Below are positions 1 to 53,536 of a DNA stretch of 64,000 bases, in pieces; positions within the stretch are counted from its first letter, which is position 1, and each line of letters starts with the position of its first letter. The translations under genes were made by a program, and so were the position numbers. The notes under the pieces are model-generated. The model made no database searches, was not told the origin of the DNA, and saw only the letters and a program-made list of their open reading frames with translations. Source of the DNA: Verrucomicrobiaceae bacterium (GTDB lineage: Bacteria; Verrucomicrobiota; Verrucomicrobiia; Verrucomicrobiales; Akkermansiaceae). The stretch is from the NCBI GenBank assembly GCA_027484055.1, contig JAIXQH010000051.1:62001-126000 (forward strand), in the 5' to 3' direction.

Positions 1-2620
1 GCTGGCCGAATCCGCGCAGGCGGGGCAATTCCTCCTGTGACAAGTCGGGAGCACGAGTGTCGGACTTTTCGTAACGACCCTTGAAGATGGCAAGCGGCCC
101 GCCATCTCCGAAAAGCAGATCTTGGAATCGCTTCCCTGAATCATCGTCATCGAAGCATAAGATTTGAACAAACAGGCCTCCTTCAAAGGACCCTTCGCCG
201 CAAGGTTTCCATTCCACGCGGACGACGGCCGTGCTCTTTTTGCCTTCGATATCCGCTTCAAGAAAAATTTGGAAACCGTTGCTCCATAAGCAGAGATCCG
301 CTCCCCGGCTTCTCTGATGATATCCAGGTTCATAGTCTTGCCTTTGTTTCCCTGACTCAGGCAGAAGGCAATCGAGAATCTTTCCCATTTGTTCTCGGGC
401 GAAGTAGGCAAGAACCTTTCGGAAATCACTATCGCCCAACATGCTTCCCTGATCTCCGTGGAGGGCGAAGCTGTGGTTCACCAAGCCTGGGTAAGTTGCC
501 GCTGTTGACTCCCACATTCTCGCCATCTCTGTCGCTATCTTGTCTCCGTTGTCAGGAAGAAGTTCCTTTTGGATCGCGATCCAATCATCTGCCCAAAGTC
601 GGACGCAGACATCGCACTGATCGAGCAATTCAAGAACGAGGTCACATCGTTCAGGACTCATTTCTAACCATTTCACTGAGTGGTAATTCATTATTTCCCT
701 CAATCGTTCCCCACCGAAGGTCCGCTGGGTGTAGGCTTTCATCGAAGTAGCCACCTTATTAGTTGTAAGCGTATAGATTGTCTCGATTCCCCACTTCTGA
801 TTCACCATCACCTCGTAGCCGCCTTTGGACTTCTTCAGTTTGAAAATAATCCCGCAGCGGTGGAGATATGTCGCGACGGCATCAGCCTGCTCGATCTGAA
901 TTTTTCTGCGCAATTGATCGTTGAAAACATCTAACTCAGGCGTCTGCTCGGTCACCAATGCCGTCCACGCCTCAAAATTCAGGAACATTCGATCCAGACT
1001 TGATTCACGAAGTTCCCTCGCGATCCGCTGCGCCACTTTTGAGAACAGTTCCGGCACTTTCATTCCATAGCGATCCGCTGCGCCACCGAGAGCTTCCCGA
1101 AGCCAACTGAGAATAAGCCGGGTGGGTTCCGCGCTGCTTTTCGCATGAAAATCCACGGCGACGATGCGGATATCGTGATCCAAAAGCTCGGCGTAGGGTC
1201 CCGCTTGCCTTCTTAGGTATTTCCTTGCTGTCTCTTCGCCTCCGCTTCCTGTGTGGACAACCAGAATGGAGACTTTTCCCTTGGAACTCTTCAAATCATC
1301 GATGGAAGCCAGGCCCAGAGCGGACCGCAGATAGTCGAGCCAGTATTTGAGTTCCCGATACTCGTTCTCCCTTTCGTAAAACGCTTTTTCCCCTTTGTCT
1401 GAAATGGCATCCAGTTCTTTTTTCAACCGGGCCTTGTGGGTATCCGGGTCTGTCGTGGCGATGATGAACACGCTGCCTTCAGAAGCAAAGAGACGGTGCG
1501 TGTTGTGATAGATCTCCTGCCCTCCGAAATCCCAGATGTGAACGGTGCCAGCTTTCGCTTCGCCGCTCCGAAACTGAAAATCCGTGTCCCATTGGTAAAA
1601 CTGGATGTTGCGGGTCGAGTCTTCGTCGAGGCGGACATTTTCTCCCCGGATGGCTTTGCTGATAGTCGTTTTCCCACAGCGACCGCTTCCCAAGAGAAGC
1701 AATTTTGACATGATCATCTCGCCTTTATCACCGGAGAGTCGCTTCATCGTTCGCCACACTCGCGCCACATTGTCTTCACCCGTCACGCTGAGATGGATCT
1801 TTCGAACATCCAAATCGCAAAAGGTGTGCAGCCTTTCGCAGCCTTCCGTCAGGAGGTAACGGATTCCCACTTCGTAATCGCCCTCTACTGTCCACCCGGC
1901 TGGCAATGATTGGATCAATTCGAGGGCCGAGCATTTGTTCAGGTTCAGGTGGTGCAGCCACGGATAGACCGAAAGATCAGGCAGTTTTGTCAAACTTGAG
2001 CAACCTTCCAGAACCAGCTTTTTCAAGCGGCGGGGAGGAAACTGCGGGTGCCATGTGCCATCGGGCGGGGTGCTTTCCTGTGGTGGCAATGTGAGTTCGA
2101 CAAGGTGACTACAACCCTTGGCAGTGAATTCCTCCATATCGCGGCAATCTTCGAGGAAGCTGGAAATGCGGTTGGATGGGATGCCCACGCAGCCGTCCAC
2201 ATGGAACCAGCGAAGGCTCGCGATGCCTTGCTTGGGTAGATTGTTGAGTGCAATGCACTCGGCAAGATCGAGGGTTTCAAGGGTGTCCGGTAGCTCTGGC
2301 AAATGGGAAAGCTGGGAGCACTTCCGGATGTCCAAGGCTTCGAGCCCCTCCGGCAGCGGGCCGAGTTTCTCCATCGGCAGGCCCCAGAGGTGGAGGTGGG
2401 TGAGATTGGGGAAGTGGTCCTTGAGGCCGGAGGCGAGGATAGGGAGGACTTCGGTCCAGTTGTCGCCGTCTTTGGCATCGCCGAGGGTGCCGAGGACGAG
2501 TTTGACGACGGTAGAGTCGGGGGTGCTCGGCCATTCGCAATCGCGGTCGGGGCCGCTTTGTTGCCAGTCTTTGCCGTTTTCGGAGCTGAGGGCGCGTGGT
2601 TTGTCAGAAGTAGTGGTCAT
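1..2620 (-). CDS. Roco-type GTPase: leucine-rich repeats, Roc and COR domains (C-terminus cut by window edge)
   Basis: Manual translation from the ATG at 2620 stays open to the left edge, giving at least 873 residues; the C-terminus lies outside. Residues about 65-260 contain irregular leucine-rich repeats. A Roc (Ras-of-complex) GTPase follows: P-loop GSGRCGKT at 311-318 and a switch-II DFGGQE about 45 residues later. The usual NKxD specificity motif is not obvious; VVHTG stands in its place. A COR-like region (LHRCGIIFKLKK, then NQKWGIETIY) follows the Roc domain, as in known Roco proteins. Roco proteins are GTP-dependent molecular switches in which COR mediates dimerisation and the LRRs usually sense or bind partners. 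It is the last gene of a leftward operon, 71 bp behind an FGE-like gene. Inference: the switch or sensor of a conflict system; what lies C-terminal is unknown. Confidence 0.88.
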   Translation of the reverse strand, partial: MTTTSDKPRALSSENGKDWQQSGPDRDCEWPSTPDSTVVKLVLGTLGDAKDGDNWTEVLPILASGLKDHFPNLTHLHLWGLPMEKLGPLPEGLEALDIRKCSQLSHLPELPDTLETLDLAECIALNNLPKQGIASLRWFHVDGCVGIPSNRISSFLEDCRDMEEFTAKGCSHLVELTLPPQESTPPDGTWHPQFPPRRLKKLVLEGCSSLTKLPDLSVYPWLHHLNLNKCSALELIQSLPAGWTVEGDYEVGIRYLLTEGCERLHTFCDLDVRKIHLSVTGEDNVARVWRTMKRLSGDKGEMIMSKLLLLGSGRCGKTTISKAIRGENVRLDEDSTRNIQFYQWDTDFQFRSGEAKAGTVHIWDFGGQEIYHNTHRLFASEGSVFIIATTDPDTHKARLKKELDAISDKGEKAFYERENEYRELKYWLDYLRSALGLASIDDLKSSKGKVSILVVHTGSGGEETARKYLRRQAGPYAELLDHDIRIVAVDFHAKSSAEPTRLILSWLREALGGAADRYGMKVPELFSKVAQRIARELRESSLDRMFLNFEAWTALVTEQTPELDVFNDQLRRKIQIEQADAVATYLHRCGIIFKLKKSKGGYEVMVNQKWGIETIYTLTTNKVATSMKAYTQRTFGGERLREIMNYHSVKWLEMSPERCDLVLELLDQCDVCVRLWADDWIAIQKELLPDNGDKIATEMARMWESTAATYPGLVNHSFALHGDQGSMLGDSDFRKVLAYFAREQMGKILDCLLPESGKQRQDYEPGYHQRSRGADLCLWSNGFQIFLEADIEGKKSTAVVRVEWKPCGEGSFEGGLFVQILCFDDDDSGKRFQDLLFGDGGPLAIFKGRYEKSDTRAPDLSQEELPRLRGFGQ

Positions 2621-2654
2621 GATGATGGATGGTTAATTTTTTCAAAAAATGTCG

Positions 2655-3608
2655 TCACCGCTGCGCGGCGGGAACGTTTGGTCGCTCAAGTTCAGATGGG
2701 CCGCTCCGTCCACCGCCTCTGCCAAGGCTGCGTCGTCCCTCCTTGTCGTGGCTCCGGGCGCGGAGACTCCGGCCCCTGTGCGACCGGACCAGGGAACACG
2801 CACAAGCGGAAGCCGTTGCCCCTGTAGCCGGAGTCGGGCCTGCCCCCGAGGCGCCACGCCGCGAGGCACCCCGAGCGTTAAAGAACGATGGGCCGCAGCG
2901 CAGGATGCGAAAGCGGTAGTCCCCAGCTTCCCTCGCCACGTTGCTCGCTTCGGCTGCTATCCCTCCATCCACGCAGGTTCGATACGCTTCCGCGTCCAAC
3001 ACGTCGGCACACCATTCCCACACGTTGCCGTGCATGTCGTAGAAACCCCATTTATTTGGGGGAAGTTCACCCACGGGATGGGTTTCGCTGCCGGAGTTCC
3101 CACAATACCACCCGACTTCCGCCAGGGCAGCCTCGACATCGCCGCGCAAGTATTCCGTTGAGGTACCGGCACGGCAGGCGTATTCCCACATCGCCTCGCT
3201 GGGCAGTCCGGCTTGCAAGCCTGGAAGAAGCAGGTCGGACTCCGACAACCATCTGCTGATTACGATTGCCTCGTCCCAATTCACACTCTCGACCGGAAGA
3301 ATTTCGCGTAGTTCTGGCGGCAAGCTCTCATCTTTGGACTGACTCGGATCTACGCCTCTATTTCTTTTGAGCGTTTCAAGCTCTTTCAAACACGCCGTGG
3401 CCATTGAACAGTATTGCGCTTGGGTGACGGGGAATGTGCCGAAATAGAAGGGCTGCGGGATCTTCACAAGATGGGTCGGTTCTTCATGACAGGGTTCGCC
3501 CCTTGAACCCATGCGGAACTCCCCGGGCAGGATGCGGCGGAGCAGCAGTGGGCTGCCGCCGGGCAGGGTGATTTCGAGGGATTCGGGGAGCGTAGCGGGA
3601 TCAGTCAT
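2655..3608 (-). CDS. FGE-sulfatase (SUMF1-like) domain protein 1, C-terminus frameshifted
   Basis: The first 245 or so residues are a clear formylglycine-generating-enzyme-like domain: GEFRMGS (29-35), FPVTQAQY, LPSEAMWEYACRAG (135-148), YDMHGNVWEWC (190-200), then RILRCGPSFFNARG. After that the frame turns into low-complexity sequence. The expected ending (AAWRLGG, GFRLCVFP) is encoded in another frame, with its stop at 2692. Adding one base in the four-C run at 2869-2872 restores a normal C-terminus, so the natural gene probably spans 2692-3608. The ATG overlaps the end of the preceding FGE-like gene by 8 bp, which implies translational coupling. No sulfatase or other classical FGE substrate is encoded nearby. 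The family includes true FGEs, EgtB-like enzymes and non-catalytic binding domains; which applies here is unknown. Confidence 0.8.
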   Translation of the reverse strand: MTDPATLPESLEITLPGGSPLLLRRILPGEFRMGSRGEPCHEEPTHLVKIPQPFYFGTFPVTQAQYCSMATACLKELETLKRNRGVDPSQSKDESLPPELREILPVESVNWDEAIVISRWLSESDLLLPGLQAGLPSEAMWEYACRAGTSTEYLRGDVEAALAEVGWYCGNSGSETHPVGELPPNKWGFYDMHGNVWEWCADVLDAEAYRTCVDGGIAAEASNVAREAGDYRFRILRCGPSFFNARGASRRGASGAGPTPATGATASACACSLVRSHRGRSLRARSHDKEGRRSLGRGGGRSGPSELERPNVPAAQR

Positions 3609-4686
3609 GGGATGGTGATTGTTGCGCTGGAGCCCCGCCGCACCCGTTCCGCCAAGCTCCGCGAGGCCTACCTATGGGCGGCGGCGTCTTGCCCGTGGTT
3701 TCATCGCAGTTTGCGGTGTTGATTCTTCCTTTGAGCTGGTCTTCTAAGGACTTTCCCATATGGATACGTTTGTTTGCCAAATTAGGGAACAAGCACAAAC
3801 GGAATCCGATTAAGCGACTGCGGTAGTTAGGCCACTCGCTGGAGCGATTCGCTGAGCGACAAGGACCGCCCAGATAATGCGAGAAGTTACCTCTTCCGCC
3901 ACAAGAGCCGCCTCGAAGTATGCGGGTAATGAATACCTTCGATTCTTCTAAGTATTCTATGATATCCTGCCCGCCCCAGGCTGTCGCCTCCCATCCATCC
4001 GTTCGCTTATGATAAGATTTGACATCCCATACATCCTCACACCACTCATTGACGTTGCCATGCAAATCATATAACCCCCAGCGGTTAGCGATCAGTTCAC
4101 CGACGGGCTGGGTTACATTACCCGAATTCCCCTGATACCATCCGGCTTTAGCGAGAGCTGTCTCGTCCTCACCGCTTGAGTAGTTGGTTTCGCTCCCTGC
4201 TCGGCAGGCGTATTCCCAGATAGCTTCGCTTGGCAGACCAGCCGGACAGCCACGGGGAAGCAGTCCGGAAGCCGACAACCAGTGGCCGATGGCGTTCGCC
4301 TCGTCCCAGCTTACTTGCTCCACTGGCAGAAATCCACGTCGTTCGGGCGGCAAATGCTTACCTTTAAAATAGCTCGGATCGACGCCTTCGTTTTCCTCGA
4401 TAGCTTTAAGATCGTCTAGGCAGGCTGTGGCTATTGCACGGTATTGTGCTTGGGTAACAGGGAAAGTGCCAAAATAACACGGTTCGGAGATAACTACGCG
4501 AATAAAAGGTGATTCATCTGTGATATTTAGTCGCGAGCCCATGCGGAACTCTCCCGCCTTGATTAGGCGGAAGAACATCGGCACGTCGCCGTCTGGATGA
4601 GGCAGATAGATCGTGAGATCAGAATCCTTCTCCGCCTGAATCCATCCGGGTGTGGGGTTTTCGGGTTGCCAGATTTTCCGGGACAT
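3601..4686 (-). CDS. FGE-sulfatase (SUMF1-like) domain protein 2
   Basis: A 361-residue protein with a complete FGE-like fold signature: GEFRMGS (45-51), FPVTQAQY (74-81), LPSEAIWEYACRAG (151-164), GLYDLHGNVNEWCED (204-218), RILRGGSCGG (255-264) and GFRLCLF (294-300). Classical aerobic FGE uses a copper-binding cysteine pair shortly after the RGGS motif. Here the cysteines are at GGSC and GGPC, not at the canonical spacing, so sulfatase-type cysteine oxidation is doubtful. After the domain, about 60 residues are charged and low in complexity. It lies between a GNAT gene (64-bp gap) and the frameshifted FGE paralogue (8-bp overlap). The two paralogues share an alternating motif order and length, indicating tandem duplication. 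Role inferred only from context: a component of the island's conflict operon. Confidence 0.87.
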   Translation of the reverse strand: MSRKIWQPENPTPGWIQAEKDSDLTIYLPHPDGDVPMFFRLIKAGEFRMGSRLNITDESPFIRVVISEPCYFGTFPVTQAQYRAIATACLDDLKAIEENEGVDPSYFKGKHLPPERRGFLPVEQVSWDEANAIGHWLSASGLLPRGCPAGLPSEAIWEYACRAGSETNYSSGEDETALAKAGWYQGNSGNVTQPVGELIANRWGLYDLHGNVNEWCEDVWDVKSYHKRTDGWEATAWGGQDIIEYLEESKVFITRILRGGSCGGRGNFSHYLGGPCRSANRSSEWPNYRSRLIGFRLCLFPNLANKRIHMGKSLEDQLKGRINTANCDETTGKTPPPIGRPRGAWRNGCGGAPAQQSPSHD

Positions 4687-4750
4687 GGGTGGTGGTTGGG
4701 TGATAACTCAGCCAGCCTAAAGCTCTGTAGCATGGTCAGGCAGCATTGCT

Positions 4751-5653
4751 TCAGGGAAGGTTTTTGCGTAATTCATCTCCGATTTGCTTTTTTTTGAGGT
4801 AGTCAAGGTAACTGAGAATTGCAGGAAAATAGCTTGTGCCAGATTCCATCATTGAATCAAAGCAGTTTTGAATCGTATGACCTGATTTTTTGAGTGCGCT
4901 ACAAAGATTATTGAGTTCAGCACTGATATCAGTTCCCTCAATATAAAGCGAATCCCACCATGCTTTGGCTTCTTGTGAAGCATCTTCCCAATGCAACTCT
5001 GCTTTCCAAAACTTCCAAGTATGATCATATCTCGTCAATTCATTATCGGGTCTTAGTAGACCTGCCACGTAGTGGAGATTGTCAGAAAAAATTGATTCTG
5101 TCTGATGTGGCATTTTGAATGAAAGTCCTTTTCTTCGATAATAGGAAGCAGCGCCTGAGTCTGCAAGGACAGTCCATTGGGGATCAGCAATTCTATTGTC
5201 AATGGCGTTTTTAAGAGCAAGCTGAACAGCATGGCGCATAAGCATGGTGCCAATTCCCAAGCCCTTTTTCTTCGCTGCTGTCCAACCCATCCAAAAGTGA
5301 TTCGGCTTTTCGAGCTCTCCAACCATAGCATTCTGATTCCCTTGTTTCGCCAAGTATTCCGGCAGCACGGAGTAAAATCCACTTACTCCAAGCGGCTTTC
5401 CATTCTTATCTAATGCTACGAAATAATGTAAAACATCAAGCTTCAGCCTGCTCTTCTCCGCCCAATCTTCTGCTTCTTTGATTTTGGATTTATCTCCTGA
5501 GTTCTTATTCAAAAAGTGAGTATAGCAAATAGCTGGATCTTCATAGACTTCATGCAAAGCAGCAGTGTGTTTTGGTAGCTCACTATAGAGAAGATCTTTT
5601 GCAAATTCGAGATATTGGTCTGATAGCGTAACGAATGTAAGTGGCAATTTCAT
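4751..5653 (-). CDS. GNAT-family N-acetyltransferase, operon copy 2
   Basis: A 300-residue protein with an acetyl-CoA-binding GNAT motif, KKKGLGIGTML at 128-138, preceded by a beta-strand pair (HYFVALDKNGKPLGVSGFY) and followed by the usual late motif ASYYRRKGLSF. Residues after about 200 have no recognisable domain. GNATs transfer an acetyl group from acetyl-CoA to an amine; the substrate cannot be predicted. The gene starts 20 bp after the preceding GNAT, so the two are cotranscribed. Base composition is clearly more A+T-rich than the core genes to the right of the island and than the SLATT gene upstream. The two GNATs differ in length and flanking sequence, so they are not a recent duplication. 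Possible role: toxin-like or regulatory acetylation in the conflict system. Confidence 0.8.
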   Translation of the reverse strand: MKLPLTFVTLSDQYLEFAKDLLYSELPKHTAALHEVYEDPAICYTHFLNKNSGDKSKIKEAEDWAEKSRLKLDVLHYFVALDKNGKPLGVSGFYSVLPEYLAKQGNQNAMVGELEKPNHFWMGWTAAKKKGLGIGTMLMRHAVQLALKNAIDNRIADPQWTVLADSGAASYYRRKGLSFKMPHQTESIFSDNLHYVAGLLRPDNELTRYDHTWKFWKAELHWEDASQEAKAWWDSLYIEGTDISAELNNLCSALKKSGHTIQNCFDSMMESGTSYFPAILSYLDYLKKKQIGDELRKNLP

Positions 5654-5673
5654 ATAAGATGGGTTGAGTAAAT

Positions 5674-6627
5674 TTATTGGTGTGATGGGAAAGCTAAAGC
5701 GAGTGAGTGCCTTAGCTTTGCTTCATCAAGATGATAGCCAAGAGGAGCATTCAGTTGATTGATCTCTACTCCAGGTGGTGGTGCGCTGGGATCAATTATT
5801 TCGGATTTCATAAGTTGAAATCCAAACTTCTCATAGAACGCAGAGACGGGAAGTGGTTGAGGATGCTCTTCTTTGGAATAGGTGATATCGCGATGGGGGA
5901 CAGTATCAAGATAGACGCACCGAACACCCTTCTCATACGCGTAAGCGAGTGTCTGAACTAATAGCGCCCCACCCAAACGCATCCCGTGCAACTGTGGATC
6001 TACAGCCATGAATACGATCTTCGCTTCATCATTAGCACCGTAGCTAAAATCTAAATGAGCCACACCAACAGGCCTACAATCATGATAAAGAACACCTAGA
6101 TCCAGTGGAGAGAATATTTCCTTTAGCTCGCTCGACGAATAAGCGGTGATGGGCCACCAAGTGGAGATGTTACCGAGCAAACTTTGGAGTGCTATCAACT
6201 GGGTATTTGTGATCTCCTGAGGCATTCCGGTGAATTCTTCAACAAGCCTGAGTTGGCGACACACCTCGGAATCTTTTCCAAAAGCATAACGCGAACTCAG
6301 CAACTCTATAGTTTCCCGATCCATAGATATCTTGTAATACGAGATGACGAGCGGATCCAGTGGCACGCATTGGATATTTTCGTCTGAATTCACATAAATG
6401 GCAATGGGCGGGGCTTCAGGGCAAGCCGCCGCGTATTTCTCAGGCGGTAATGTCAGAATCTCGCCCTGCTTGGGAGGAGAGTCCAGATATTGCACGGCGT
6501 TAGCAATCAATGCTATCATTCTTGGGTTGCGGTTCGCCTGCTCGCGCATAGCAACTTCCTTGAGCAAATTCCCTTGGGCCTCTTTGGGATTAATATGCGT
6601 CATGTTATTTTTGTGTGAGTTGGACAT
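5674..6627 (-). CDS. GNAT-family N-acetyltransferase, operon copy 1
   Basis: A 317-residue protein whose C-terminal half carries a GNAT core: strand IVFMAVDP (204-211), pyrophosphate-binding loop LHGMRLGGALL (213-223), strand RCVYLDTV and terminal AFYEKFGF (263-270). The N-terminal 150 residues have no family I recognise and may contact the substrate. The start at 6627 (MSNSHKNN) is used here; a second ATG at 6603 is possible. It follows the FGE-like gene by 25 bp and precedes a second GNAT by 20 bp. Composition is A+T-rich for this genome, consistent with horizontal acquisition with the rest of the island. Substrate and role are unknown; the presence of two acetyltransferases suggests a modification step acting on a partner protein or on host translation components. 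Confidence 0.78.
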   Translation of the reverse strand: MSNSHKNNMTHINPKEAQGNLLKEVAMREQANRNPRMIALIANAVQYLDSPPKQGEILTLPPEKYAAACPEAPPIAIYVNSDENIQCVPLDPLVISYYKISMDRETIELLSSRYAFGKDSEVCRQLRLVEEFTGMPQEITNTQLIALQSLLGNISTWWPITAYSSSELKEIFSPLDLGVLYHDCRPVGVAHLDFSYGANDEAKIVFMAVDPQLHGMRLGGALLVQTLAYAYEKGVRCVYLDTVPHRDITYSKEEHPQPLPVSAFYEKFGFQLMKSEIIDPSAPPPGVEINQLNAPLGYHLDEAKLRHSLALAFPSHQ

Positions 6628-6652
6628 CGATTGGGGTAGAAATAATTTAATA

Positions 6653-7552
6653 TTATAAGCGGTCTAGCCAAAGATGACTTAGAATACTGGGTCTTTCGTA
6701 GCCTTTCAGGTATCTTCGCGGACTGTAAGGAGGCTTAAAATCTTTGTGCGCGAGGCAGATGCGAGTCCCTTGCCCCTCACGATGGTTACGAGAAAACCAG
6801 CGGTCACGCCAAGCCGTCCGCCCCATCTTGCTAGGTAATGCCGCACTCATCCGGACAGAACGGTCGTGAATATAGACCTGCTGGCTCGCAACTGAGTGAT
6901 TAAGCGAATGGATTTTTTCCGCTGCCTCATGATTAGTAGATCTTACAGCATAAGCCTTCACGTCTCTTATATCATCACACCATTCCCATTTTATGTCTGG
7001 AAGCCCTTCCATCCCCCAAGGATGCGGGTATTGACTATCTGAGTCTTGAGAAATGCCGTCACCCCACCAATAGTCCGTCGTGGAGCCAGCCCGCATGGCA
7101 TACTCCCACCACGCCTCGGGGGGGATGCACGGATAATAATCCAGAGGTAAATCGGAGGCACAGGTCTTTCTTAGCCATTCACAAAAACCAACAGCTTCAA
7201 ACCAGTTGAATATGGCTCCGGATTCCGGGGACAGAGTACGGATGCGTTCCCCTTGATCGTAACAATCGGGATGATCCTTCTTCCAATATTTAAAGTCATC
7301 AGACTCTAACCATAGCTTGGCTTGTTTTTTGTTTATGGGTAGGCGAGCCAGATAAAATGGCTTGGGAATGATCACTTGGTGCTGGGGTTCTTCATCCCAG
7401 TCGAAACCACGGGCACCCATAATGAACGATAGAGGCTGAATCTTATCAAGAGCCTGCTGCTGAATGGCTATGGGAGGAATTGCCTGAAATGCAATTTCTA
7501 TTCCTTCGGGTGAAGTTATTGGTTCAATTTCAGATATCATGGAGAAATTCAT
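6653..7552 (-). CDS. Divergent FGE-sulfatase-like domain protein 3
   Basis: A 299-residue protein from the ATG at 7552 (ATG 7540 is an alternative). FGE-like landmarks are present but weakened: FIMGARG (43-49), KPFYLARLPINKKQ (64-77), IPPEAWWEYAMRAG (143-156) and IKWEWCDDIRDV (187-198). In the C-terminal third the family's RGGS signature is absent, and GTRICLA (262-268) takes the place of GFRLC. The catalytic cysteine pair is missing, so this copy is probably a structural or binding module, not an active oxidase. It is much more diverged than the two paralogues downstream. It sits between the SLOG/SLATT gene (34-bp gap) and the first GNAT gene (25-bp gap) in the same operon. Confidence 0.75.
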   Translation of the reverse strand: MNFSMISEIEPITSPEGIEIAFQAIPPIAIQQQALDKIQPLSFIMGARGFDWDEEPQHQVIIPKPFYLARLPINKKQAKLWLESDDFKYWKKDHPDCYDQGERIRTLSPESGAIFNWFEAVGFCEWLRKTCASDLPLDYYPCIPPEAWWEYAMRAGSTTDYWWGDGISQDSDSQYPHPWGMEGLPDIKWEWCDDIRDVKAYAVRSTNHEAAEKIHSLNHSVASQQVYIHDRSVRMSAALPSKMGRTAWRDRWFSRNHREGQGTRICLAHKDFKPPYSPRRYLKGYERPSILSHLWLDRL

Positions 7553-7586
7553 GGAGAAATAGGTAGTTGAGTTTTTTAGTGATGGC

Positions 7587-10103
7587 TCAACCTGCCATGA
7601 GCATTTCCAGCGGACGGGCGCGGTGCTGGATGAGCCACTCGGCATTTTCATCGAGGGCCTCGCAGCCGAGTTGGTGGAGGATGTCGTGGATTTCGAAGAG
7701 GATGCGGTCGGTGGTGGCACCGGTGGCAGGAGCCTCAGCGTAGCGGGCGATGAGATCCTGGAAGCGGCGGTCAGCACAGGAGAAGAGATTTCCCATGGCG
7801 CGATATTGGCGGGCTTCCTCGGCGTAGAAATTCCGCTCCGCCCAAGCGACGCAGAGGGCGCCGGCGAGAAGAAGTGTGCCGGTGAAGATGATCCACCAGT
7901 TGTGGCCGTCTGGCCAGTAATGGGTGACTTCGCCCCATTTGTGGGAGATGCCAGCAAGGGCTCCCGCAAGGACAAGGGCGCTGCCCCAAACGAAAGGCTT
8001 GCCAAAGATCGAAAGAAGGAAGTCGTTGAGACTCGCTTTCCCGCCGTGGGCGTGGGCTGCGTGGTGATCCTTGTCCGCGTGTTTTTTCCCGAAATGGGAT
8101 TTCACAAAGACATACGCCAACAGGACAATCCCGGGCCAGACGAGCCAGTGGACGAATTGGCAAGGGCAGTGCTCGAAAGCCTTTTTGATCGGCACGAGGA
8201 GCTTGGCGAGCAGCATGAGGAACATGGAGGCCAAGCCAGCGGCAGCGAGGGTCCATCCGCAAGTGTGCCAGAGGTGGGCGTTCTTTTCCTGTTTCTCAGC
8301 GTTTCCTATTTTACCGGGAGAGCCTTGAAAGTAGTCGATCTGCTCTCCCAACCAATGCTTGCGGGTAGCTTCCAGGAGCTGCACCTGACTGGCCCTGGGG
8401 AGAGCGAGGAACGCCTCGCGAGTGGTCTCGTGCGGCATAGAGATGGAGGAAATCACGTAGCGGATCCAGTCGAGTTCATCGCGCTGGCGCTGCATGTAGT
8501 CGGCAGCGACGCTGCGGCCAGTGCCAGCGAGTTTCCAAAAGAACTGAACCCGCAAGCCCTCGCCAATGGCGCGGTAGTCGAAGCGGTTTTCCTCATCACC
8601 GGACTTTTGGTAGATATAGTATTTTACGCCTGAGTAGATGAGGCAGGAGAAGGTACCCAGAAGGAGGAGGATCTGGGTCCAGATCATGAAATCATCCGGG
8701 AAGATTTGGCCTTCGTGTGGAGGGTGGAGCTTGTGGAGATGATGATGCCAGTGCTCGAAGCAGCCGTAGAAGGTAGCTGCGAAGAGGATGAGCCAGAACA
8801 TTAGGGAGAGGAGCTTTTTTCGATCGCTGGTTAGGCTGCGGGATTTGATCGCAGCACGCCGGCGGATGCGGGCGATAGGATCGAGCGTGGCGGCAAACTC
8901 CGTGGCAGCAGGGTCGGACAGGGTGGCGGTCAACTTGGCGAGTTCCTTTTTCTCGTCTCGGTCTTCAGCGAGACGATTGAACCTTTCCTGATAATTGAGA
9001 ACGCGGCGGAAGCGGGTGTCGCCGGTTTCCTGCCATGCGAGGTGCTGGTCATCGGCCTCAGAGACGTTCTCCGGCTTGAGGTCGTAGGGGTGGAGGAAAC
9101 GCATTGGGCCGGGCTGCGGGAGCCTGGCCTGGAGCGCAGCTGGTAAATCATCGCGCTTGCGGCGGCGGACGGGGATGAGCAGCACGGGGCCGTTGTCCGC
9201 CCAGGCGAAGTTATTGGCCACTGCGAGCAACTCGTGGGTGAGGCCGCGGCGCTTGGCCTCGACGATGGTGGCGGTGCCAGCCTCAAAGATATCGGCGATC
9301 AGGGTGCGCTTGAGTTTCTGAGGATCTTTGGCTTTTTCCTGAGGGGGATCGGATTTTTCCCAAGGTTCGAGGAGGTCGTGAGGTTCATCCTGAATGGCGA
9401 TGAGGAGATCGGAATGGACGGCGATGTATTCCCCGGCAGCGCGGTAACGAAGTCGGCGGCGGGGTTTGTCGTTGTAGTCTGGGTCGGTGCCTGTGAGATC
9501 GGCTTCGGCGGCTTCGCGGGCGGTTTTTCCGGGGGGCATTAGGTCGTTGTCGAGGGCGACGCCGAAGATGAAGCCAGGGATGCGCTGAGCTTGGATTTCC
9601 GCGAGGAGTGAGTGGTAGCGTGCGATCTTGGTAGCATCTTTTTCGCCGAAAGTGGAAGTGCGCTCGTAGATATCCGGCGGAAAAGGGAGCGGCGCAGAGA
9701 GAGAGACGTGTGGGTGAGTCTTGGCATACTCAAGCACGGTCTCGGCGACGATGGTATCCGCGCCCGGTGCGAGGGAGGAAAGCACGAGGATGGGCGTCTG
9801 GGATAGACCGAGGGAGCGCCATGGGTCAGGTTTTTGATTCTTGGGATTATGGTCCTCTGGGGGATCTACAAGATAGCCGGTTCTCGGGTCGAGCCGTTTG
9901 TGGCTGACGGTGATCCAATCGAGGATGTTCACGATCTTGGCCTTGAGACAGGTCATTTTCTCAGGGGAGTCGCACACATCCCGGGCATCCGCGTAAACTA
10001 CGGGATCGACGTTTCCGGTGATCCCGAGCACGAAGGGCGGCTTGGGAATGGTGGTCTGCGTGACGCCGGGGGGTGACTTTTCGGGAGTGGGATCTTGGGA
10101 CAT
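7587..10103 (-). CDS. SLOG-like Rossmann domain fused to six-helix SLATT-like membrane protein
   Basis: First gene of the leftward operon. The start at 10103 (MSQDPTPEK) is preferred; ATG 10139 would add 12 residues, and that longer form is used for numbering. Residues 35-330 form a Rossmann-like domain beginning FVLGITGNVDP, with LSSLAPGADTIVAE at 120-133. This resembles SLOG-type nucleotide-binding domains of conflict systems. Six hydrophobic helices follow at about 443-460, 484-508, 627-648, 661-679, 714-731 and 748-767, separated by charged cytosolic stretches. The C-terminal part after the last helix (AERNFYAEEARQYR, then HRARPLE) is typical of SLATT-like proteins, which are thought to form pores when a nucleotide signal is sensed. 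Inference: membrane sensor or effector. Assignment rests on motif pattern, not on a profile search. Confidence 0.7.
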   Translation of the reverse strand: MSQDPTPEKSPPGVTQTTIPKPPFVLGITGNVDPVVYADARDVCDSPEKMTCLKAKIVNILDWITVSHKRLDPRTGYLVDPPEDHNPKNQKPDPWRSLGLSQTPILVLSSLAPGADTIVAETVLEYAKTHPHVSLSAPLPFPPDIYERTSTFGEKDATKIARYHSLLAEIQAQRIPGFIFGVALDNDLMPPGKTAREAAEADLTGTDPDYNDKPRRRLRYRAAGEYIAVHSDLLIAIQDEPHDLLEPWEKSDPPQEKAKDPQKLKRTLIADIFEAGTATIVEAKRRGLTHELLAVANNFAWADNGPVLLIPVRRRKRDDLPAALQARLPQPGPMRFLHPYDLKPENVSEADDQHLAWQETGDTRFRRVLNYQERFNRLAEDRDEKKELAKLTATLSDPAATEFAATLDPIARIRRRAAIKSRSLTSDRKKLLSLMFWLILFAATFYGCFEHWHHHLHKLHPPHEGQIFPDDFMIWTQILLLLGTFSCLIYSGVKYYIYQKSGDEENRFDYRAIGEGLRVQFFWKLAGTGRSVAADYMQRQRDELDWIRYVISSISMPHETTREAFLALPRASQVQLLEATRKHWLGEQIDYFQGSPGKIGNAEKQEKNAHLWHTCGWTLAAAGLASMFLMLLAKLLVPIKKAFEHCPCQFVHWLVWPGIVLLAYVFVKSHFGKKHADKDHHAAHAHGGKASLNDFLLSIFGKPFVWGSALVLAGALAGISHKWGEVTHYWPDGHNWWIIFTGTLLLAGALCVAWAERNFYAEEARQYRAMGNLFSCADRRFQDLIARYAEAPATGATTDRILFEIHDILHQLGCEALDENAEWLIQHRARPLEMLMAG

Positions 10104-10373
10104 GGTGCTGGGGTAAGGAACGGTTCCGACTGCTAACATGAAGCAATCAGAATGCCGCGGTTCTTCCCATCACAAAGTTCATGACCTTGGAGCTTTCGGG
10201 CTGTCATTGGATGTGCATTCCACCATTCTCAAGATGATTGAAAAAGCTTTCGACAAGAGTGGTCGAAGGCAGGGTCATATTCAGGGATTTATGGCGAAAC
10301 CGTCATCAAGATGTGAGAGATGTTGGCCTGATGAGTGCTCACGGTAAATGGGAGCATTTGAATCCATATCCGC
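10104..10373. promoter_or_regulatory. Divergent intergenic control region of the putative conflict system
   Basis: This 270-bp stretch separates the start of the SLOG/SLATT operon (minus strand) from the trypsin-NUC1 gene (plus strand) and must contain both promoters. It has no convincing gene. I could not pick out a confident -35/-10 pair or operator by eye. The head-to-head layout is consistent with joint control of sensor operon and effector. Confidence 0.4.
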
Positions 10374-12599
10374 ATGAGCTTGATCCACGATCGCATCCAG
10401 AAAGCCATTCAACGTAGCTCAGGGATCGATTTGAAGGAAGTCCGTGAAGAGGCCCGGACGCTACTCCCAACCCAGATGGCGGGGAGGGAGGAACTGGAAG
10501 CTCGTAGGCGATATTTGATGCAGGTGTCATCCGACAGCTCGCAGGCTGAATTGGCTTATGAGCGGATCATTCATGGGAATGAGCTGCAGGATGTGAATTA
10601 CCTGGCGAGGGGAGTGAGCGCGGCCCGAGCCGTGGGGCGCATATCCATCCGCGAGCCCAACGGGCGACTGAGCGGCTACGGAACAGGGTTTTTGATTGGC
10701 GAGGGAGTACTGTTGACCAACAACCACGTGCTGCCTTGCTCGGCCTTGGCCGGGAGATCCGAGCTGGAAATGGAATATGAAAGGGACGAATGGGGCAAGC
10801 AGTTGCCAGGGGTTAAATTTTCGCTTGAGCCCGGGAAGTTATTTTTCACGCATCCGGAGTTGGACTTCTCGGTGGTGGCTGTATCGGCAAGGGCAATGAA
10901 TGCGGAGAGGGCTCTGAGTGAATTTGGACGCCTGCCACTGGTGGGCCTATTGGGCAAGGCGGTGGAGGGGGAATGGCTCACTATCATCCAGCACCCGGGA
11001 GGGGAGTTGAAGCAACTGTGCGTTCGTGAAAACCGGTTGCTGCGGCGAACCCCGGATGTGCTTTGGTATTCGTCAGACACCCTTGGTGGTTCATCCGGAT
11101 CGCCTGTATGCAACAACGACTGGCTGGTGGTGGCCCTGCATCACAGTGGCGTCCCGGAGGTCAAGAACGGGAAGTGGCAGACCGTGGATGGCCAGGACTA
11201 TGACGAGCGTCTGCATCGGGAGGAAGACATCAAGTGGGTGGCCAACGAAGGGATCCGGGTAAGCCGGATCGTGCAGGAGTTGCAACGTTCGATGGGAGAT
11301 CACCCGATGATTGCAGAATGCTGCAAGGATTCGCCGGGGCAGGCGCATCCCAAGCTCCCTCCGGATCCATCTCACTCACCAATCCCACCAATCTATCAAC
11401 CAGCCCAAATCATCCATCCCATGACACCTGAACCGAATCCCCGGCTCGCCGGACAGAAATACCTTCTCAGCTTTGATGCGGTCGGCACTCCAAGCATCAC
11501 CCAATGGCTCGGAGGGGATTCCATTGAATCCACGAAAGCCAGCGCTGAACGCACGCCCGGCCCAAGCGCTCCCGCTCCGCGTGGCATGCGCTTTCAGTTC
11601 GACCATGACTACAGCAACAGGAAGGGATATGACCTCCATTTCCTCACAGCCAACGGAAAGACATCCGCTCACAGTGTGCAACTTCCTACGCTGCAGGGCT
11701 CTTTGGAAGGGAACGCCCTTCGACTTTTGGCAGCCGCTGACGACAAGGACTACGTACTGAAATACACCAATATGAGTCTGGTGATGCACAAGAAGAGGAA
11801 GTTCGCCATCTATTCAGCGGCGAATGTTGACTTTGGCCGGCGTTACGAAGGTCTTCAGTCAAAGCGCGTGTGGAAATACGACCCTCGGATCTCAGTGGAT
11901 GACCAAACAGGCGATGAGGCCTACGACAACGCCTTTGACCGCGGCCATCTGACCCGCCAAGAGGATATGGAATACGGGGATTCCATGCAGGACGCGCTGC
12001 AGTCCACGGCCGACACCTGCCATTGGACGAACGTTTGCACCCAGCATGCGAAATTCAACAGGGGAAAAGACTGGTGGCAGGGAATGGAGCGACACATCCT
12101 AGAATACTCAGTGGATCCGCGCGAAGGAAAAGGTTTCCGTGCTCAAATCTTTACTGGACCGGTGCTCGCCAAGAATGATCCGGAATTTCCTGAAGTTCCG
12201 GATCTCCGAATCCCCGTGAAGTTCTGGAAAGTCTGCGCGGCTGTGACCTCAAGCGGGAAGTTGTTTGCCGTCGCATACCTGTTGGACCAGACACCAGTGA
12301 TCAAAAAATACGGACTGAAAGAGGCAGCCGGGGAAGTTCCCTTTGAACCCTACAAGCTGTTCCAACTGCCGATTTCCGAGTTGGAAGCGATGATCCAGCT
12401 GAAGTTCACATGCGGATCGAACGGAGCCAACCGACTCAGCACGGTAGACCCGTTGGAGGGAGTCGACGCAAACGACCTGCCGGGGCTGGATGCCGACCAG
12501 GACGGATATGATGACCGCTACGAACAGACGGGCGACTCCTATCGAAAACCCCAAGGCTGGCTGGATCTTACCTGCCATCGCCCATTCTTCGGCACTTGA
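10374..12599 (+). CDS. Trypsin-like protease fused to NUC1-type DNA/RNA non-specific endonuclease
   Basis: A 741-residue three-part protein. Residues 1-90 form a small helical N-terminal region (AYERIIHGNELQDVNYL at 61-77), of the kind seen as an effector-associated adaptor before trypsin domains in conflict systems. Residues 95-300 are a trypsin-like peptidase with His118 (TNNHVL), Asp164 (ELDFSVV) and Ser241 (GGSSGSP). A proline-rich linker (about 320-400) leads to a beta-beta-alpha-metal nuclease of the NUC1/Serratia type, with DRGH at 522-525 (general base His525) and the metal-ligand Asn562 (FNRG). All catalytic residues visible are intact. There is no signal peptide, so it acts in the cytoplasm. 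It is transcribed divergently from the seven-gene operon. Inference: the killing effector, with proteolysis possibly gating the nuclease. Confidence 0.88.
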   Translation: MSLIHDRIQKAIQRSSGIDLKEVREEARTLLPTQMAGREELEARRRYLMQVSSDSSQAELAYERIIHGNELQDVNYLARGVSAARAVGRISIREPNGRLSGYGTGFLIGEGVLLTNNHVLPCSALAGRSELEMEYERDEWGKQLPGVKFSLEPGKLFFTHPELDFSVVAVSARAMNAERALSEFGRLPLVGLLGKAVEGEWLTIIQHPGGELKQLCVRENRLLRRTPDVLWYSSDTLGGSSGSPVCNNDWLVVALHHSGVPEVKNGKWQTVDGQDYDERLHREEDIKWVANEGIRVSRIVQELQRSMGDHPMIAECCKDSPGQAHPKLPPDPSHSPIPPIYQPAQIIHPMTPEPNPRLAGQKYLLSFDAVGTPSITQWLGGDSIESTKASAERTPGPSAPAPRGMRFQFDHDYSNRKGYDLHFLTANGKTSAHSVQLPTLQGSLEGNALRLLAAADDKDYVLKYTNMSLVMHKKRKFAIYSAANVDFGRRYEGLQSKRVWKYDPRISVDDQTGDEAYDNAFDRGHLTRQEDMEYGDSMQDALQSTADTCHWTNVCTQHAKFNRGKDWWQGMERHILEYSVDPREGKGFRAQIFTGPVLAKNDPEFPEVPDLRIPVKFWKVCAAVTSSGKLFAVAYLLDQTPVIKKYGLKEAAGEVPFEPYKLFQLPISELEAMIQLKFTCGSNGANRLSTVDPLEGVDANDLPGLDADQDGYDDRYEQTGDSYRKPQGWLDLTCHRPFFGT

Positions 12600-13111
12600 T
12601 TTGCGGATCACGGCTGTCTCTAGCATCGGCATTTATGGTGCGACATGCCACATAGAGATCAAAGGGTTCGGATCATCACCAAACCAGTAGCCTCCGGTCC
12701 AATTCACAGCCTACGAGGATAGTGCTTTGCGGAGGGGATCCCTCTGGCAGCCTCCCGTCACCCGGCAGACGGAAACACTCGTTTCCGTCCGGGTTAGGCG
12801 GGGGTTCAAGGGGGATCGGGACCCAACGCACAAGCAAACCCGCAGGAGGTGGGCTGGCGCAGTCTCTTCGGGGCGTTGCGGGGTGTCCCCGCTGAGATGG
12901 GAGCGAGCAACGGAGAGCAGCAGAGTGTGAGCGCGGGAAGAGACCTCTTCCCGGCCTCCTTCGAATCCGTGGACTAGGCACGTCCTTTCATCCACTCAAC
13001 AATCTATCACCTCAGGCATCTATGTCGAATCTGTCGCACGTCTGCCCACCACGAGGATGGCCTGATCAAACCCATCTGTGCTTCCGAAGCACCAACCGTC
13101 CATCACTCTGG
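12600..13111. other. Non-coding interval with hairpins between effector and integrase
   Basis: This 512-bp stretch has no credible gene. It includes a perfect hairpin around 12775-12795 (GACGGAAAC, 4-base loop, GTTTCCGTC), a G-rich stretch near 12800-12825, and an 8-bp perfect palindrome near 12937-12954 (GGGAAGAG/CTCTTCCC). None is followed by a clear T-run, so they do not look like ordinary terminators. It may hold integrase-binding arm sites or a structured RNA, or may be remnant sequence. Confidence 0.4.
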
Positions 13112-14314
13112 CTAGTCTTTCAGGATTACATCAGGCGTCAGCTTCCAATATTGCTCGGCATCTTCGTCGGTCCGTTCACCATCGAGATAGTGGTGACGAA
13201 CCATGGACTCGGAGTTGCCCATCTCGACAGCCACCACACCCACTTCTCCCAATTGAAGAACCCGGTAAGTCCCGTAGGAATGCCTCAGGATGTCATCTTC
13301 AATAGCTGGCATACCCTCCGGATAATAGGCCCGTTTCCACTTTCGGAATCGCTGGTAAAAGCTGTAACCCCTGACCACCGGGCCAGCCAGCAATCCATTT
13401 TCACGTTTCCGGATGTAGTCAATCCACGATCCGAGCGTTTCGTTCACCGGAACCTGTCTCGCCTTCTTGATTTTTCCGAGGCGCTTCTCCTTGACGAGCT
13501 TTGTCCGATTGAGAATGGCCGACCAGTTCAAGGTGATCCAACCGGCCTGCTTCGGAAGCTCGGTCACGAATTCATGCGGTCTGATCCCGGAGAATAGGGA
13601 AATGACCAAATAGGAAAGCACCTCACGGTCATAATGCCGGATTGCGATCCTGAGCAGTTCCTCCGCTTCATCGGGCGACATCACCTTGACCGGAAGTTCG
13701 CCCGGCTGGGGTTTCTCGATCACCGTGCAGGGGTTCGACGGCAACAGGTCACGGTTTTTGGCCCATGTGCCAAAAGCTGAAATGACCGCCCACACGTTTC
13801 GCGCGGAGGCCGACGAAGTCCGTTCTTCCTCGTCTTTGATGAAACCACGCAGATTCTCCACCTCACACGCCTCAAACACCGTCACCTCTGGAGTATCCTC
13901 GTGTGCCCATTTCAAGAGTCCGAGCCTATGCACGCGTTCCCTTACGGTCGAGGTGGCCTTGCCTTTGGATCGGCAATGATCGATGAATTGATCGATTGCA
14001 TCCGTCAGCGGGATCGAGGCGATTTTCTTGGCGTAATACGGCAACCAGAAATCAACTGCAGCCGCCACAGTGGTTCCAGCCGCTTCACACCGGTGATGCA
14101 AGGTCATTAGTTCGGCAATCAGGTCTGATGGCACTGCGGCAAGTTTCCGCCCCCGGTTTGCCAAGGTCAGTTTGTGTTCGCGAATCACATTCTGGAGCGC
14201 TAGTTTCGTGGCGCGCTGAGCATACTGGTTGCCGCCCAAATAGACCCGATACCCACCATCGGGAGTGTCTGTGATATTGTAGCTCAGTTTCTTCGCCATG
14301 CCATTGATTGACAT
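13112..14314 (-). CDS. Tyrosine recombinase/integrase of the island
   Basis: A 400-residue phage-type integrase. An N-terminal arm-binding region and a SAM-like core-binding domain (about 100-200; LTDAIDQFIDHCRSKG) precede the catalytic domain. Catalytic arginine is in FSGIRPHEF. The second motif reads DDILRHSYGTY, so the usual His of HxxR is Asp. The motif before the nucleophile is MGNSESMVRHHYLDG, with the tyrosine in HHY. ATG 14314 is used; ATG 14299 is possible. It lies 58 bp from a partial tRNA-Cys, the classical arrangement for an element integrated in the 3' end of a tRNA gene. It is therefore assigned as the enzyme that inserted the island spanning region 1-14.4 kb. No excisionase was found nearby. 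Confidence 0.9.
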   Translation of the reverse strand: MSINGMAKKLSYNITDTPDGGYRVYLGGNQYAQRATKLALQNVIREHKLTLANRGRKLAAVPSDLIAELMTLHHRCEAAGTTVAAAVDFWLPYYAKKIASIPLTDAIDQFIDHCRSKGKATSTVRERVHRLGLLKWAHEDTPEVTVFEACEVENLRGFIKDEEERTSSASARNVWAVISAFGTWAKNRDLLPSNPCTVIEKPQPGELPVKVMSPDEAEELLRIAIRHYDREVLSYLVISLFSGIRPHEFVTELPKQAGWITLNWSAILNRTKLVKEKRLGKIKKARQVPVNETLGSWIDYIRKRENGLLAGPVVRGYSFYQRFRKWKRAYYPEGMPAIEDDILRHSYGTYRVLQLGEVGVVAVEMGNSESMVRHHYLDGERTDEDAEQYWKLTPDVILKD

Positions 14315-17880: not shown

Positions 17881-18102
17881 TCACTCAGCTGGGGGCTGGA
17901 ATCTGTCCGCCTTTTCCCGGCCGTGGATGACCTCGATGGGAGCCACCCGATGGGTCTCCGCAAAACGCGAGGTGAGCCGGGCGGTGATTTCCGGGGAAAA
18001 GCCATCATGGGTCTCGATGATGAAATCCCAGTCCTTGAAGTGGCGGATGACTGCGTCGCTAAGCAAGTGTTCCTCGGAGCCCTTGCAATCCATGATCATC
18101 AA
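17881..18102 (-). pseudogene. C-terminal remnant of a FkbM-like methyltransferase
   Basis: About 73 residues (GLMIMDCKGSEEHLL, DWDFIIETHDG) resemble the last third of FkbM-family SAM-dependent methyltransferases, in which an acidic strand is followed by this layout. Upstream the same frame continues without a clear start into the 3' end of the GT9 gene, and the SAM-binding half is missing. It is best read as a decayed gene. It lies between glgP and the heptosyltransferase, so it may once have modified a cell-surface glycan. Confidence 0.4.
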
Positions 18103-18154
18103 GCCTCGCGACGTTGCGAGTCCATGAGGACGGAAATGACGTTTCCCACATGCT

Positions 18155-19099: not shown

Positions 19100-19148
19100 T
19101 TCCCGCCACCCTAGTTCCCACACCTCCCCACGGGAACTGTAAAATCAC
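19052..19148 (-). repeat. Direct repeat copy A: 5' end and upstream region of the GT9 gene
   Basis: A 97-bp segment covering the first 15 or so codons and about 50 bp upstream of the GT9 gene. It matches 20662-20755 at most positions, with a 3-bp length difference (a GCC missing from copy B) and scattered substitutions. The two copies bracket a 1.5-kb cassette with a PEP-CTERM gene and an unrelated secreted-protein gene. Confidence 0.85.
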
Positions 19149-19344
19149 ACACTCCCAACGACGGTTCGCCCACCAGCTCTTTCAACGGCCCCGATGCAAA
19201 AAAATTTTCGGACCATTTTTTTCTTGCTGGTCATGTTTTGAAGCGATATGAGGCCCTGCCCCCAAAAATTTTATTTGTATCTCATGGATTCAGGAGATGC
19301 AGGATTTTGCCTTCCATTCTCCCTACTCACCCCCATCTCGATAC

Positions 19345-19971: not shown

Positions 19972-20146
19972 GTGCAAAACTCATTGGCTTTCGACAAGCG
20001 ATCGGTTATCGACTGAAAGCAGGACGGAGCGAATCGTCAACTCGGCCACTCCTTGCGCGCAGAACTCAAGGCTGCGCGGACTAACCCAGCGATGATAGCC
20101 GAGAACAAACCCTTTGAGGTTTTCACACAAAGCCAAAAGTAGCCGG

Positions 20147-20638: not shown

Positions 20639-20661
20639 TTTGATTAATTAAAGAGCGCCTA

Positions 20662-20755
20662 ATCCCAACGCAGCGGCGCCACAATCATTTCTCCAGCTAG
20701 CTTCATTTCCCGCCACCATAGTCCCCACACATCCCTACGGGAACTATAAAATCAG
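20662..20755 (-). repeat. Direct repeat copy B: truncated 5' end of the GT9 gene
   Basis: The second copy of the GT9 start region. It encodes MKLAGEMIVAPLRWD and then a TAG stop, so it is a dead gene start and not a promoter-only match. Divergence from copy A is moderate, indicating that the duplication is not brand new. Confidence 0.82.
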
Positions 20756-53524: not shown

Positions 53525-53536
53525 GGCGGAGGGTGG

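What the first reader, a model, noticed from the sequence alone, without database searches (positions are those of the whole stretch)
1..12599. Undescribed eight-gene system: SLOG/SLATT sensor, three FGE-like proteins, two GNATs and a Roco GTPase, divergent from a trypsin-NUC1 effector
On one strand, with gaps of at most about 70 bp or overlaps, lie SLOG/SLATT, FGE-3, GNAT, GNAT, FGE-2, FGE-1 and a Roco GTPase. Facing them is an intact protease-nuclease fusion. Trypsin, FGE-sulfatase, SLATT and SLOG domains are known pieces of NTP- and nucleotide-dependent conflict systems, and Roco proteins are GTP switches. I know of no description of this exact combination. The genes sit on an integrase-borne island and are unusual in composition, which fits defence.
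Basis: partly seen in the sequence, partly recalled or inferred. Interest (0 to 1): 0.9.

Follow-up and report, generated by a model that had tools for sequence, protein, structure and literature searches.

The report
Roco–TIR immune locus with hypervariable sensors
The genes are part of a probable bacterial immune system in which lectin-like sensor proteins, of a kind that relatives rewrite with a built-in mutation machine, act through a GTP switch; the general idea is in print, but this branch, its partner genes and its apparently frozen sensor array are a new variant.

Summary
The genes are real and where stated, but the "eight-gene system" is drawn wrongly. The Roco is cut by the window edge; whole, it is LRR-Roc-COR-TIR. 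The same strand continues left with four more FGE genes, a ClpX-like AAA gene and a second SLOG-like membrane gene. A conserved system exists: Haloferula luteola keeps SLOG/SLATT, FGE, Roco-TIR, FGE, AAA in this order, and 8 of 8 close Roco relatives have FGE adjacent or fused, against 2 of 72 other Rocos. Trypsin-NUC1 is not part of it (0 of 9 relatives). The GNATs are local additions, though one shares a C-terminal domain with the AAA protein. The FGEs are not sulfatase-modifying enzymes but resemble TvpA-type variable sensors: two relatives carry a diversity-generating retroelement (DGR) inside the locus, mismatches lying almost only at template adenines. No reverse transcriptase was found in this genome, yet its FGE loops vary at the same positions. 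Best reading: DGR-type sensors feeding a Roco-TIR switch and a membrane effector. AP-GTPase + FGS + DGR systems were outlined by Kaur et al. 2021; this is a new variant. Function is untested.

The parts
1..2620 (-). Roco: LRR-Roc-COR; the C-terminal TIR-like part lies left of the window (whole gene C61:61279-64620, 1113 aa)
2655..3608 (-). [quoted passage not shown]
3601..4686 (-). FGE-2, CLec/FGE-type sensor; 52% identical (BLAST) to the FGE upstream of the Haloferula Roco
   Evidence: model (mean pLDDT 64.6) matches PvdO, TvpA 2y3c and FGE enzymes
4751..5653 (-). GNAT-type acetyltransferase, local addition
4775..5005 (-). C-terminal domain of this GNAT, shared with the C-terminus of the ClpX-like AAA protein (32-34% over 71-77 residues); possible adaptor domain
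5674..6627 (-). second GNAT-type acetyltransferase, local addition
6653..7550 (-). FGE-3, divergent FGE-type protein (start codon not settled)
   Evidence: PF03781 2.1e-9
7587..10139 (-). SLOG/SLATT-like membrane protein, 850 aa, six hydrophobic segments
   Evidence: (SLATT_1 in relative)
10374..12599 (+). trypsin-NUC1 (NucA) fusion; neighbour, probably a separate System 3 type gene
13112..14314 (-). tyrosine recombinase, possible island integrase

Best explanation
A conflict (probably anti-phage) system: FGE/C-type-lectin sensors plus one LRR-Roc-COR-TIR switch, in this family with a SLOG/SLATT-like membrane protein and a ClpX-like AAA protein. Proposed mechanism: variable C-terminal loops of an FGE protein bind an invader molecule (inferred from fold and variability); the Roco changes GTP state and oligomerises (inferred); its TIR cleaves NAD+ or makes a cyclic ADP-ribose signal (inferred from family); the SLOG part binds that signal and the SLATT segments open the membrane, arresting or killing the cell (inferred, by analogy with Thoeris TIR-to-SLOG signalling); the AAA protein remodels or recycles the complex, and a GNAT may dock on it through the shared C-terminal domain (inferred). 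Sensor diversity is made by a DGR in some relatives (shown at sequence level in two). In this genome no reverse transcriptase or template was found, and diversity seems held as an array of seven FGE genes, one broken. Trypsin-NUC1 is a neighbour, not core.
For: Haloferula luteola: SLOG/SLATT (49% identical), FGE (52%), Roco-TIR (33%), FGE (about 53% to FGE4-6), AAA (68%), same order as here. FGE adjacent or fused in 8 of 8 close Rocos of an independent scan against 2 of 72 others, Fisher p=1.6e-9, confirmed by tblastn. These with window, G363 and G320 are one side of a branch, 12 of 12 rows, SH-aLRT 95. TIR_2 at E<=0.002 in 7 of 9 Rocos scanned; the window's TIR matches a profile of the clade's TIRs at 2.3e-12 in a set of 5 sequences. 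DGR: G363 RT (RVT_1 1.4e-18), mismatches at template A 10/10, 14/16, 11/14 in a 90-nt core; Phycisphaerae locus 17/17 and 17/18. Window genome: at positions with A in both foreign templates 18/19 vary among FGE4-6, elsewhere 34/83, p=1.1e-5; loops 33-38% identical, scaffolds 61-66%, while 18 enzyme FGE pairs with scaffold identity 0.55-0.72 average 0.73 in the loop. Best PDB sequence match of FGE4 is TvpA 2y3c, 3.8e-16.
Against: No phage or cell-death data. No RT or template found in this genome. The window's TIR is weak in Pfam (0.074) and G363's Roco lacks it. SLOG/SLATT is in 3 of 11 loci, in two types that align only over about 107 N-terminal columns, and its domain call is weak; its structure model failed (pLDDT 43.6). 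AAA was found only here and in Haloferula. One FGE is broken. The column test borrows templates from other genomes; 4 of 78 enzyme FGE pairs also have a loop/scaffold identity ratio of 0.6 or less. The FGE2 model matches enzymes about as well as TvpA. No PADLOC model matches Roco, FGE4-7 or the SLOG/SLATT proteins.
Confidence: 0.6

Rival explanations
1. One reading: Roco/SLOG-SLATT sensing leads to a proteolytic trypsin-NUC1 effector, with GNATs as modifiers.
For: Physical closeness: trypsin-NUC1 starts 234 bases from the SLOG/SLATT gene; motifs TNNHV, DFS, GGSSGSP and DRGH present. One GNAT shares a domain with the AAA protein.
Against: 0 of 9 other trypsin-NUC1 loci have an FGE, Roco or SLOG/SLATT gene; trypsin-NUC1 in 0 of 10 other FGE-Roco loci; GNATs in no other of 387 genomes.
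Confidence: 0.12
2. The locus is a decaying relic: DGR lost, FGE-1 broken, the rest drifting in a defence island.
For: No RT or template; FGE-1 frame break; an AAA gene fragment between FGE6 and FGE7; none of 11 same-genus genomes searched has the Roco.
Against: Six of seven FGE genes (FGE-3 divergent), Roco, both SLOG-like genes and the AAA gene are long open frames; P-loop and DFGGQE motifs intact; AAA 68% identical to Haloferula's.
Confidence: 0.15
3. Not immunity but self/non-self or surface-ligand recognition between cells, using the same variable lectin sensors.
For: The FGE ligand is unknown; DGR targets have several roles (general knowledge).
Against: TIR and SLATT-type parts and the neighbouring Dnd and Argonaute genes favour defence.
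Confidence: 0.1
4. The FGE genes are true formylglycine-generating or EgtB-like enzymes that modify other proteins.
For: Pfam FGE domain; the FGE2 model also matches FGE enzymes.
Against: The genome's sulfatase-linked FGE has GGSFxCxxxxC; by spacing, FGE4-7 and FGE2 lack the first Cys. In G363 and L071 related FGEs are DGR targets.
Confidence: 0.03

Closest known systems
AP-GTPase (Roco) / FGS-domain conflict systems with DGR (Kaur et al. 2021, PMC8195603)
   Same: LRR-Roc-COR GTPase, TIR among the C-terminal effectors, FGS lectin-fold sensor, DGR association, multiple copies; adaptor domains shared between effectors (sections 7 and 15 read)
   Different: There FGS is described as combined with the NTPase or as one of many C-terminal domains, and FGS systems are stressed in cyanobacteria; here FGE is mostly a separate gene in an array, TIR sits on the Roco, SLOG/SLATT and AAA are partners, and the clade is Verrucomicrobiota/Planctomycetota. 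The word SLATT does not occur in its main text
DGR-diversified CLec sensors of STAND and MoxR ternary systems (Dore et al. 2024, PMC10907252)
   Same: FGE-type CLec targets proposed as antigen sensors diversified by DGR (abstract and section 12 read)
   Different: NTPase is STAND/NACHT, KAP or other P-loop types; no occurrence of GTPase, Roc, SLATT or SLOG in its main text
GTPase-centric (GAP1-N) systems with SLATT and FGS (Kaur et al. 2020, PMC7159879)
   Same: GTPase plus SLATT, in planctomycetes also FGS effectors (passages only)
   Different: Built on GAP1 domains, not LRR-Roc-COR
Thoeris
   Same: TIR-made ADP-ribose signal to a SLOG-containing effector is the proposed logic (abstract of PMC11204291 seen in a listing)
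   Different: No Roco or FGE; no Thoeris model matched here; the mechanism here is untested
System 3, trypsin + NucA (Kaur et al. 2020, PMC7159879, section 32 read)
   Same: Trypsin and NucA fused in one protein: the window's 10374-12599 gene
   Different: No evidence that it belongs to the Roco/FGE system

Membership tests
AP-GTPase/FGS conflict system | LRR + Roc + COR in one protein | tested here: met
   Roc 4e-15 over its cut-off; COR-A 1.1e-6 and LRR_4 5.4e-4 below theirs
AP-GTPase/FGS conflict system | effector domain at the C-terminus (TIR) | tested here: met
   weak in Pfam (0.074), clear with a profile of the clade's TIRs
AP-GTPase/FGS conflict system | FGS domain fused or in the same locus | tested here: met
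   adjacent genes here; fused in L065 and L067
AP-GTPase/FGS conflict system | DGR in the locus or genome ('often' in that paper) | tested here: not met
   no RVT_1 and no DGR RT found in this 95% complete genome; met in G363 and L071
DGR target protein | variable region differing from its template mainly at template adenines | tested here: inconclusive
   no own template; indirect footprint only; met in relatives
Formylglycine-generating enzyme | both active-site cysteines | tested here: not met
   by spacing from GGS(W/F), first Cys position is A/N/D/D in FGE4-7 and G in FGE2; second Cys present in three of FGE4-7; roles of the two Cys are recalled, C336/C341 mutants appear
SLATT effector | SLATT profile match | tested here: inconclusive
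   none for the window protein; relative L066 7.1e-5, under cut-off
SLOG domain | profile or fold match | tested here: inconclusive
   no profile hit; model unusable
Kaur 2020 System 3 | trypsin and NucA domains together | tested here: met
Thoeris | ThsA-type (SIR2-SLOG or Macro) effector with a ThsB TIR | tested here: not met
   no Thoeris model among PADLOC hits of 9 window proteins or of the whole Roco, FGE4-7, SLOG-like gene 2 and two Haloferula proteins

The most novel reading that the evidence does not exclude
A hypermutating bacterial receptor turned germline: FGE sensors once rewritten by a DGR were duplicated, the reverse transcriptase was lost, and fixed receptors now share one Roco-TIR transducer that signals through SLOG/SLATT pores, with an AAA protein and a GNAT joined by a new shared adaptor domain: a bacterial counterpart of a frozen receptor repertoire.
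Probability: 0.3. Interest if true: 0.8.

Novelty: new variant of a known kind. Interest (0 to 1): 0.6.

Why it matters
It links targeted hypermutation to a LRRK2-like Roco switch with a TIR domain in two bacterial phyla, and offers a compact locus in a cultured species (Haloferula luteola) on which the untested idea of DGR-made antigen sensors could be put to experiment. If the window's array is a frozen repertoire, it would show how bacteria move from mutation-made to gene-encoded receptor diversity.

Tried and rejected
Eight-gene system with trypsin-NUC1 effector: rejected on neighbourhood surveys. FGEs as enzymes: rejected on the missing first cysteine and on the target role of relatives. 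Active DGR in the window genome: not supported; RVT_1 profile, DGR RT protein and a VR-based DNA search found none (the last found FGE6 itself, FGE5 and a 22-base match at E 0.14). Templates in trans: only a weak hint in the Pirellula genome (22 mismatches in 70, 11 at A), not claimed. SLOG/SLATT structure model: failed. Phage and plasmid records: no relative of the Roco in phages, none of the SLOG/SLATT protein in plasmids (the other two combinations were not run). Third-codon-position test on FGE4-7: weak (0.50 against 0.36 same, p=0.008), not relied on. Roco hits in G190 and G307 (L061-L063): no FGE; the G199 hit was not examined.

On re-check I found that my ORF picker hides genes under longer false frames: it missed the second FGE and the AAA gene of Haloferula. 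I repeated the surveys by tblastn: the counts 8/8, 2/72 and 0/9 stand. My first claim that the GNATs have no link to the system was softened.

Rows dropped: 3 of 87 short Rocos from the tree, whose own shuffle control sets the group against only two other labelled rows (37 of 500 shuffles as low) and says little; 6 of 19 enzyme FGE loci without the searched motif from the control; FGE2 from the column test because of an insertion, FGE-1 and FGE-3 as broken or divergent; FGE7 from the main figure (with it 18/19 against 45/83, p=5e-4). Over the full 185 nt around the template, mismatches at A are 24/49, 26/53 and 28/66, since the flanks are not copied.
Full report
What is there. The window is positions 62001-126000 of contig C61 of a 4.4 Mb, 95% complete genome. 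Its organism was not told; the closest counterpart of the locus (Haloferula luteola) suggests Verrucomicrobiota (inference). Beyond the left edge the Roco is a 1113-aa protein, LRR-Roc-COR followed by a TIR-like domain. On the same strand follow FGE4 (C61:60109-61245), FGE5 (58851-60023), FGE6 (57607-58839), FGE7 (56403-57323), a ClpX-like AAA gene (54898-56427) and a second SLOG-like membrane gene (52550-54760). A fragment of a second AAA copy (82 residues, 65% identical) lies between FGE6 and FGE7. Seven FGE genes thus lie between two SLOG-like membrane genes. The two membrane genes are of different types: their profiles align over about 107 N-terminal columns (hhalign E 2.3e-6). FGE-1 is frame-broken in its C-terminal region.

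Is it a conserved system? In 387 genomes drawn from the phylum, own genome included, relatives were found of the SLOG/SLATT protein in 3 (E 1e-5), trypsin-NUC1 in 10 and Roco in 6 (E 1e-10), and each GNAT in 1, the own genome (E 1e-5). One Roco relative (G363) sits in a counterpart: a type-2 SLOG-like gene divergent from FGE, FGE, reverse transcriptase, FGE, Roco; another (G320) has FGE next to Roco-TIR. The eight best (E 3e-36 or lower; the next is 9e-18) all have an FGE adjacent or fused; of the other 72, two have an FGE in the locus (Fisher p=1.6e-9), and tblastn gives the same counts. Locus lengths differ (5.6-22 kb in the eight, median 14 kb in the 72), so absences in short contigs count for less. 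A tree of 84 Roc-COR segments puts the 12 FGE-linked Rocos on one side of a branch (SH-aLRT 95), with warnings about long branches.

The closest counterpart. In Haloferula luteola the order is SLOG/SLATT (49% identical), FGE (52% to FGE-2), Roco-TIR (33%), FGE (about 53% to FGE4-6 over 211-217 residues) and the AAA protein (68%), all on one strand. The window's locus is this five-gene set with more FGEs, two GNATs and a second SLOG-like gene added. In the 11 FGE-Roco loci a SLOG-like gene is in 3 (window, G363, Haloferula) and the AAA gene in 2 (window, Haloferula). In L072 two further proteins join a TIR-like N-terminus to an FGE domain (read from sequence, not profile-tested). None of 11 same-genus genomes searched has the Roco at E 1e-10, so the locus may be acquired.

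What is not part of it, and a possible exception. In 9 of 9 other genomes the 20-kb neighbourhood of trypsin-NUC1 has no FGE, Roco or SLOG/SLATT gene; it fits System 3 of Kaur et al. 2020. The GNATs are absent from the other FGE-Roco loci, but the C-terminal 71-77 residues of the first GNAT resemble the C-terminus of the AAA protein (32% to the own AAA, 34% to Haloferula's; E 5.8e-6 and 8e-9 in the loci held). By the logic of the effector-associated domains of Kaur et al. this may be an adaptor that brings the GNAT to the AAA protein (inference). The other SLOG/SLATT relatives, in G190 and G217, have no adjacent FGE; in G190 a 646-aa protein with FGE similarity lies about 6 kb away.

The FGEs look like sensors, not enzymes. 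The genome's sulfatase-linked FGE has GGSFxCxxxxC; FGE4-7 and FGE2 lack the first Cys by spacing. The best PDB sequence match of FGE4 is TvpA of Treponema denticola (2y3c, 3.8e-16), a DGR-diversified protein (PMC7159879, section 25). The FGE2 model (mean pLDDT 64.6) matches PvdO, TvpA and FGE enzymes with similar scores, so fold alone does not decide.

The DGR link. In G363 a template lies in the 3' part of the RT gene; over a 90-nt core, mismatches to the three FGE variable regions fall on template adenines in 10 of 10, 14 of 16 and 11 of 14. In the Phycisphaerae locus L071 it is 17 of 17 and 17 of 18. The window genome shows neither RVT_1 nor the DGR RT, and its FGE6 variable region finds no template; an RT in the missing 5% is possible. 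Yet FGE4-6 vary at 18 of 19 positions that are adenine in both foreign templates and at 34 of 83 others (p=1.1e-5). Their loops are 33-38% identical while their scaffolds are 61-66% identical; 18 pairs of enzyme FGEs with scaffold identity 0.55-0.72 average 0.73 in the loop, 2 of them more than 0.15 below their scaffold, and over all 78 pairs loop and scaffold both average 0.54, 4 pairs having a ratio of 0.6 or less. This fits past DGR action followed by duplication, or strong selection on the same binding face; I cannot separate the two. Of the 11 genomes holding the locus, 7 have some match to the RT at 1e-8, not all of it DGR-type perhaps; in two the RT is inside the locus. Haloferula's genome has only one weak match (9.1e-9).

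How it may work. Shown: gene association and order, domain make-up, DGR signature in two relatives, loop variability here. Inferred: the FGE loop binds an invader molecule, the Roco changes GTP state, its TIR acts on NAD+, SLOG reads the product, SLATT opens the membrane, and the AAA protein remodels the complex. The TIR-to-SLOG step follows Thoeris (abstract seen in a listing, PMC11204291), the pore step the SLATT prediction quoted in Kaur 2020 (passage).

What is known. Kaur et al. 2021 (PMC8195603, sections 7 and 15 read) state that in FGS-centred systems the STAND NTPase may be replaced by an AP-GTPase, that FGS genes are often tied to a DGR, and that bacterial LRR-AP-GTPase-COR proteins carry at least 24 C-terminal domains, TIR and FGS among them. 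Dore et al. 2024 (abstract and section 12 read) propose DGR-made antigen sensors. Roux et al. 2021 (PMC8144416) was seen in passages only, with no hit for Roc, GTPase or TIR. Searches of the open library listed no paper that I recognised as describing this clade or its SLOG/SLATT and AAA partners; I opened only the papers named here, and subscription papers and supplements were not searched. Hence: a new variant of a known kind.

Noticed in passing
L002:4125-6921 (C61:46125-48921): Short Argonaute ORF (pAgo_I 2.5e-148) with, before it on the same strand, two ORFs that match the TIR and the APAZ-type halves of one protein family: a SPARTA-like set whose partner gene appears split.
   Followed up: partly
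L029:406-6693 (C61:22406-28693): DndA, DndB, DndC and DndD/PbeC homologues: phosphorothioation-type genes in the same stretch.
   Followed up: partly
window 4775-5005 and L002:12904-13134: A 71-77 residue C-terminal domain shared by a GNAT and a ClpX-like AAA protein, perhaps an undescribed adaptor domain (no Pfam name for it).
   Followed up: partly
L002:15357-15602: Fragment of a second AAA gene copy between FGE6 and FGE7, a trace of duplication.
   Followed up: no
window 12676-12981; L002 about 1987-2340 and 3462-3782: A repeated element of about 300 bases seems to recur around the island (similar false-frame translations).
   Followed up: no
L072:15727-16773 and 17920-20727: Two proteins with a TIR-like N-terminus and an FGE domain beside an FGE-Roco pair.
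   Followed up: no
L065:208-4857, L067:2853-6915: FGE fused to the N-terminus of the Roco in two planctomycete MAGs.
   Followed up: partly
G320 genome: Ten matches to the DGR-type reverse transcriptase at E 1e-8 in one genome.
   Followed up: no
window 54000-57000: G+C falls to 0.40-0.45, another possible insertion.
   Followed up: no
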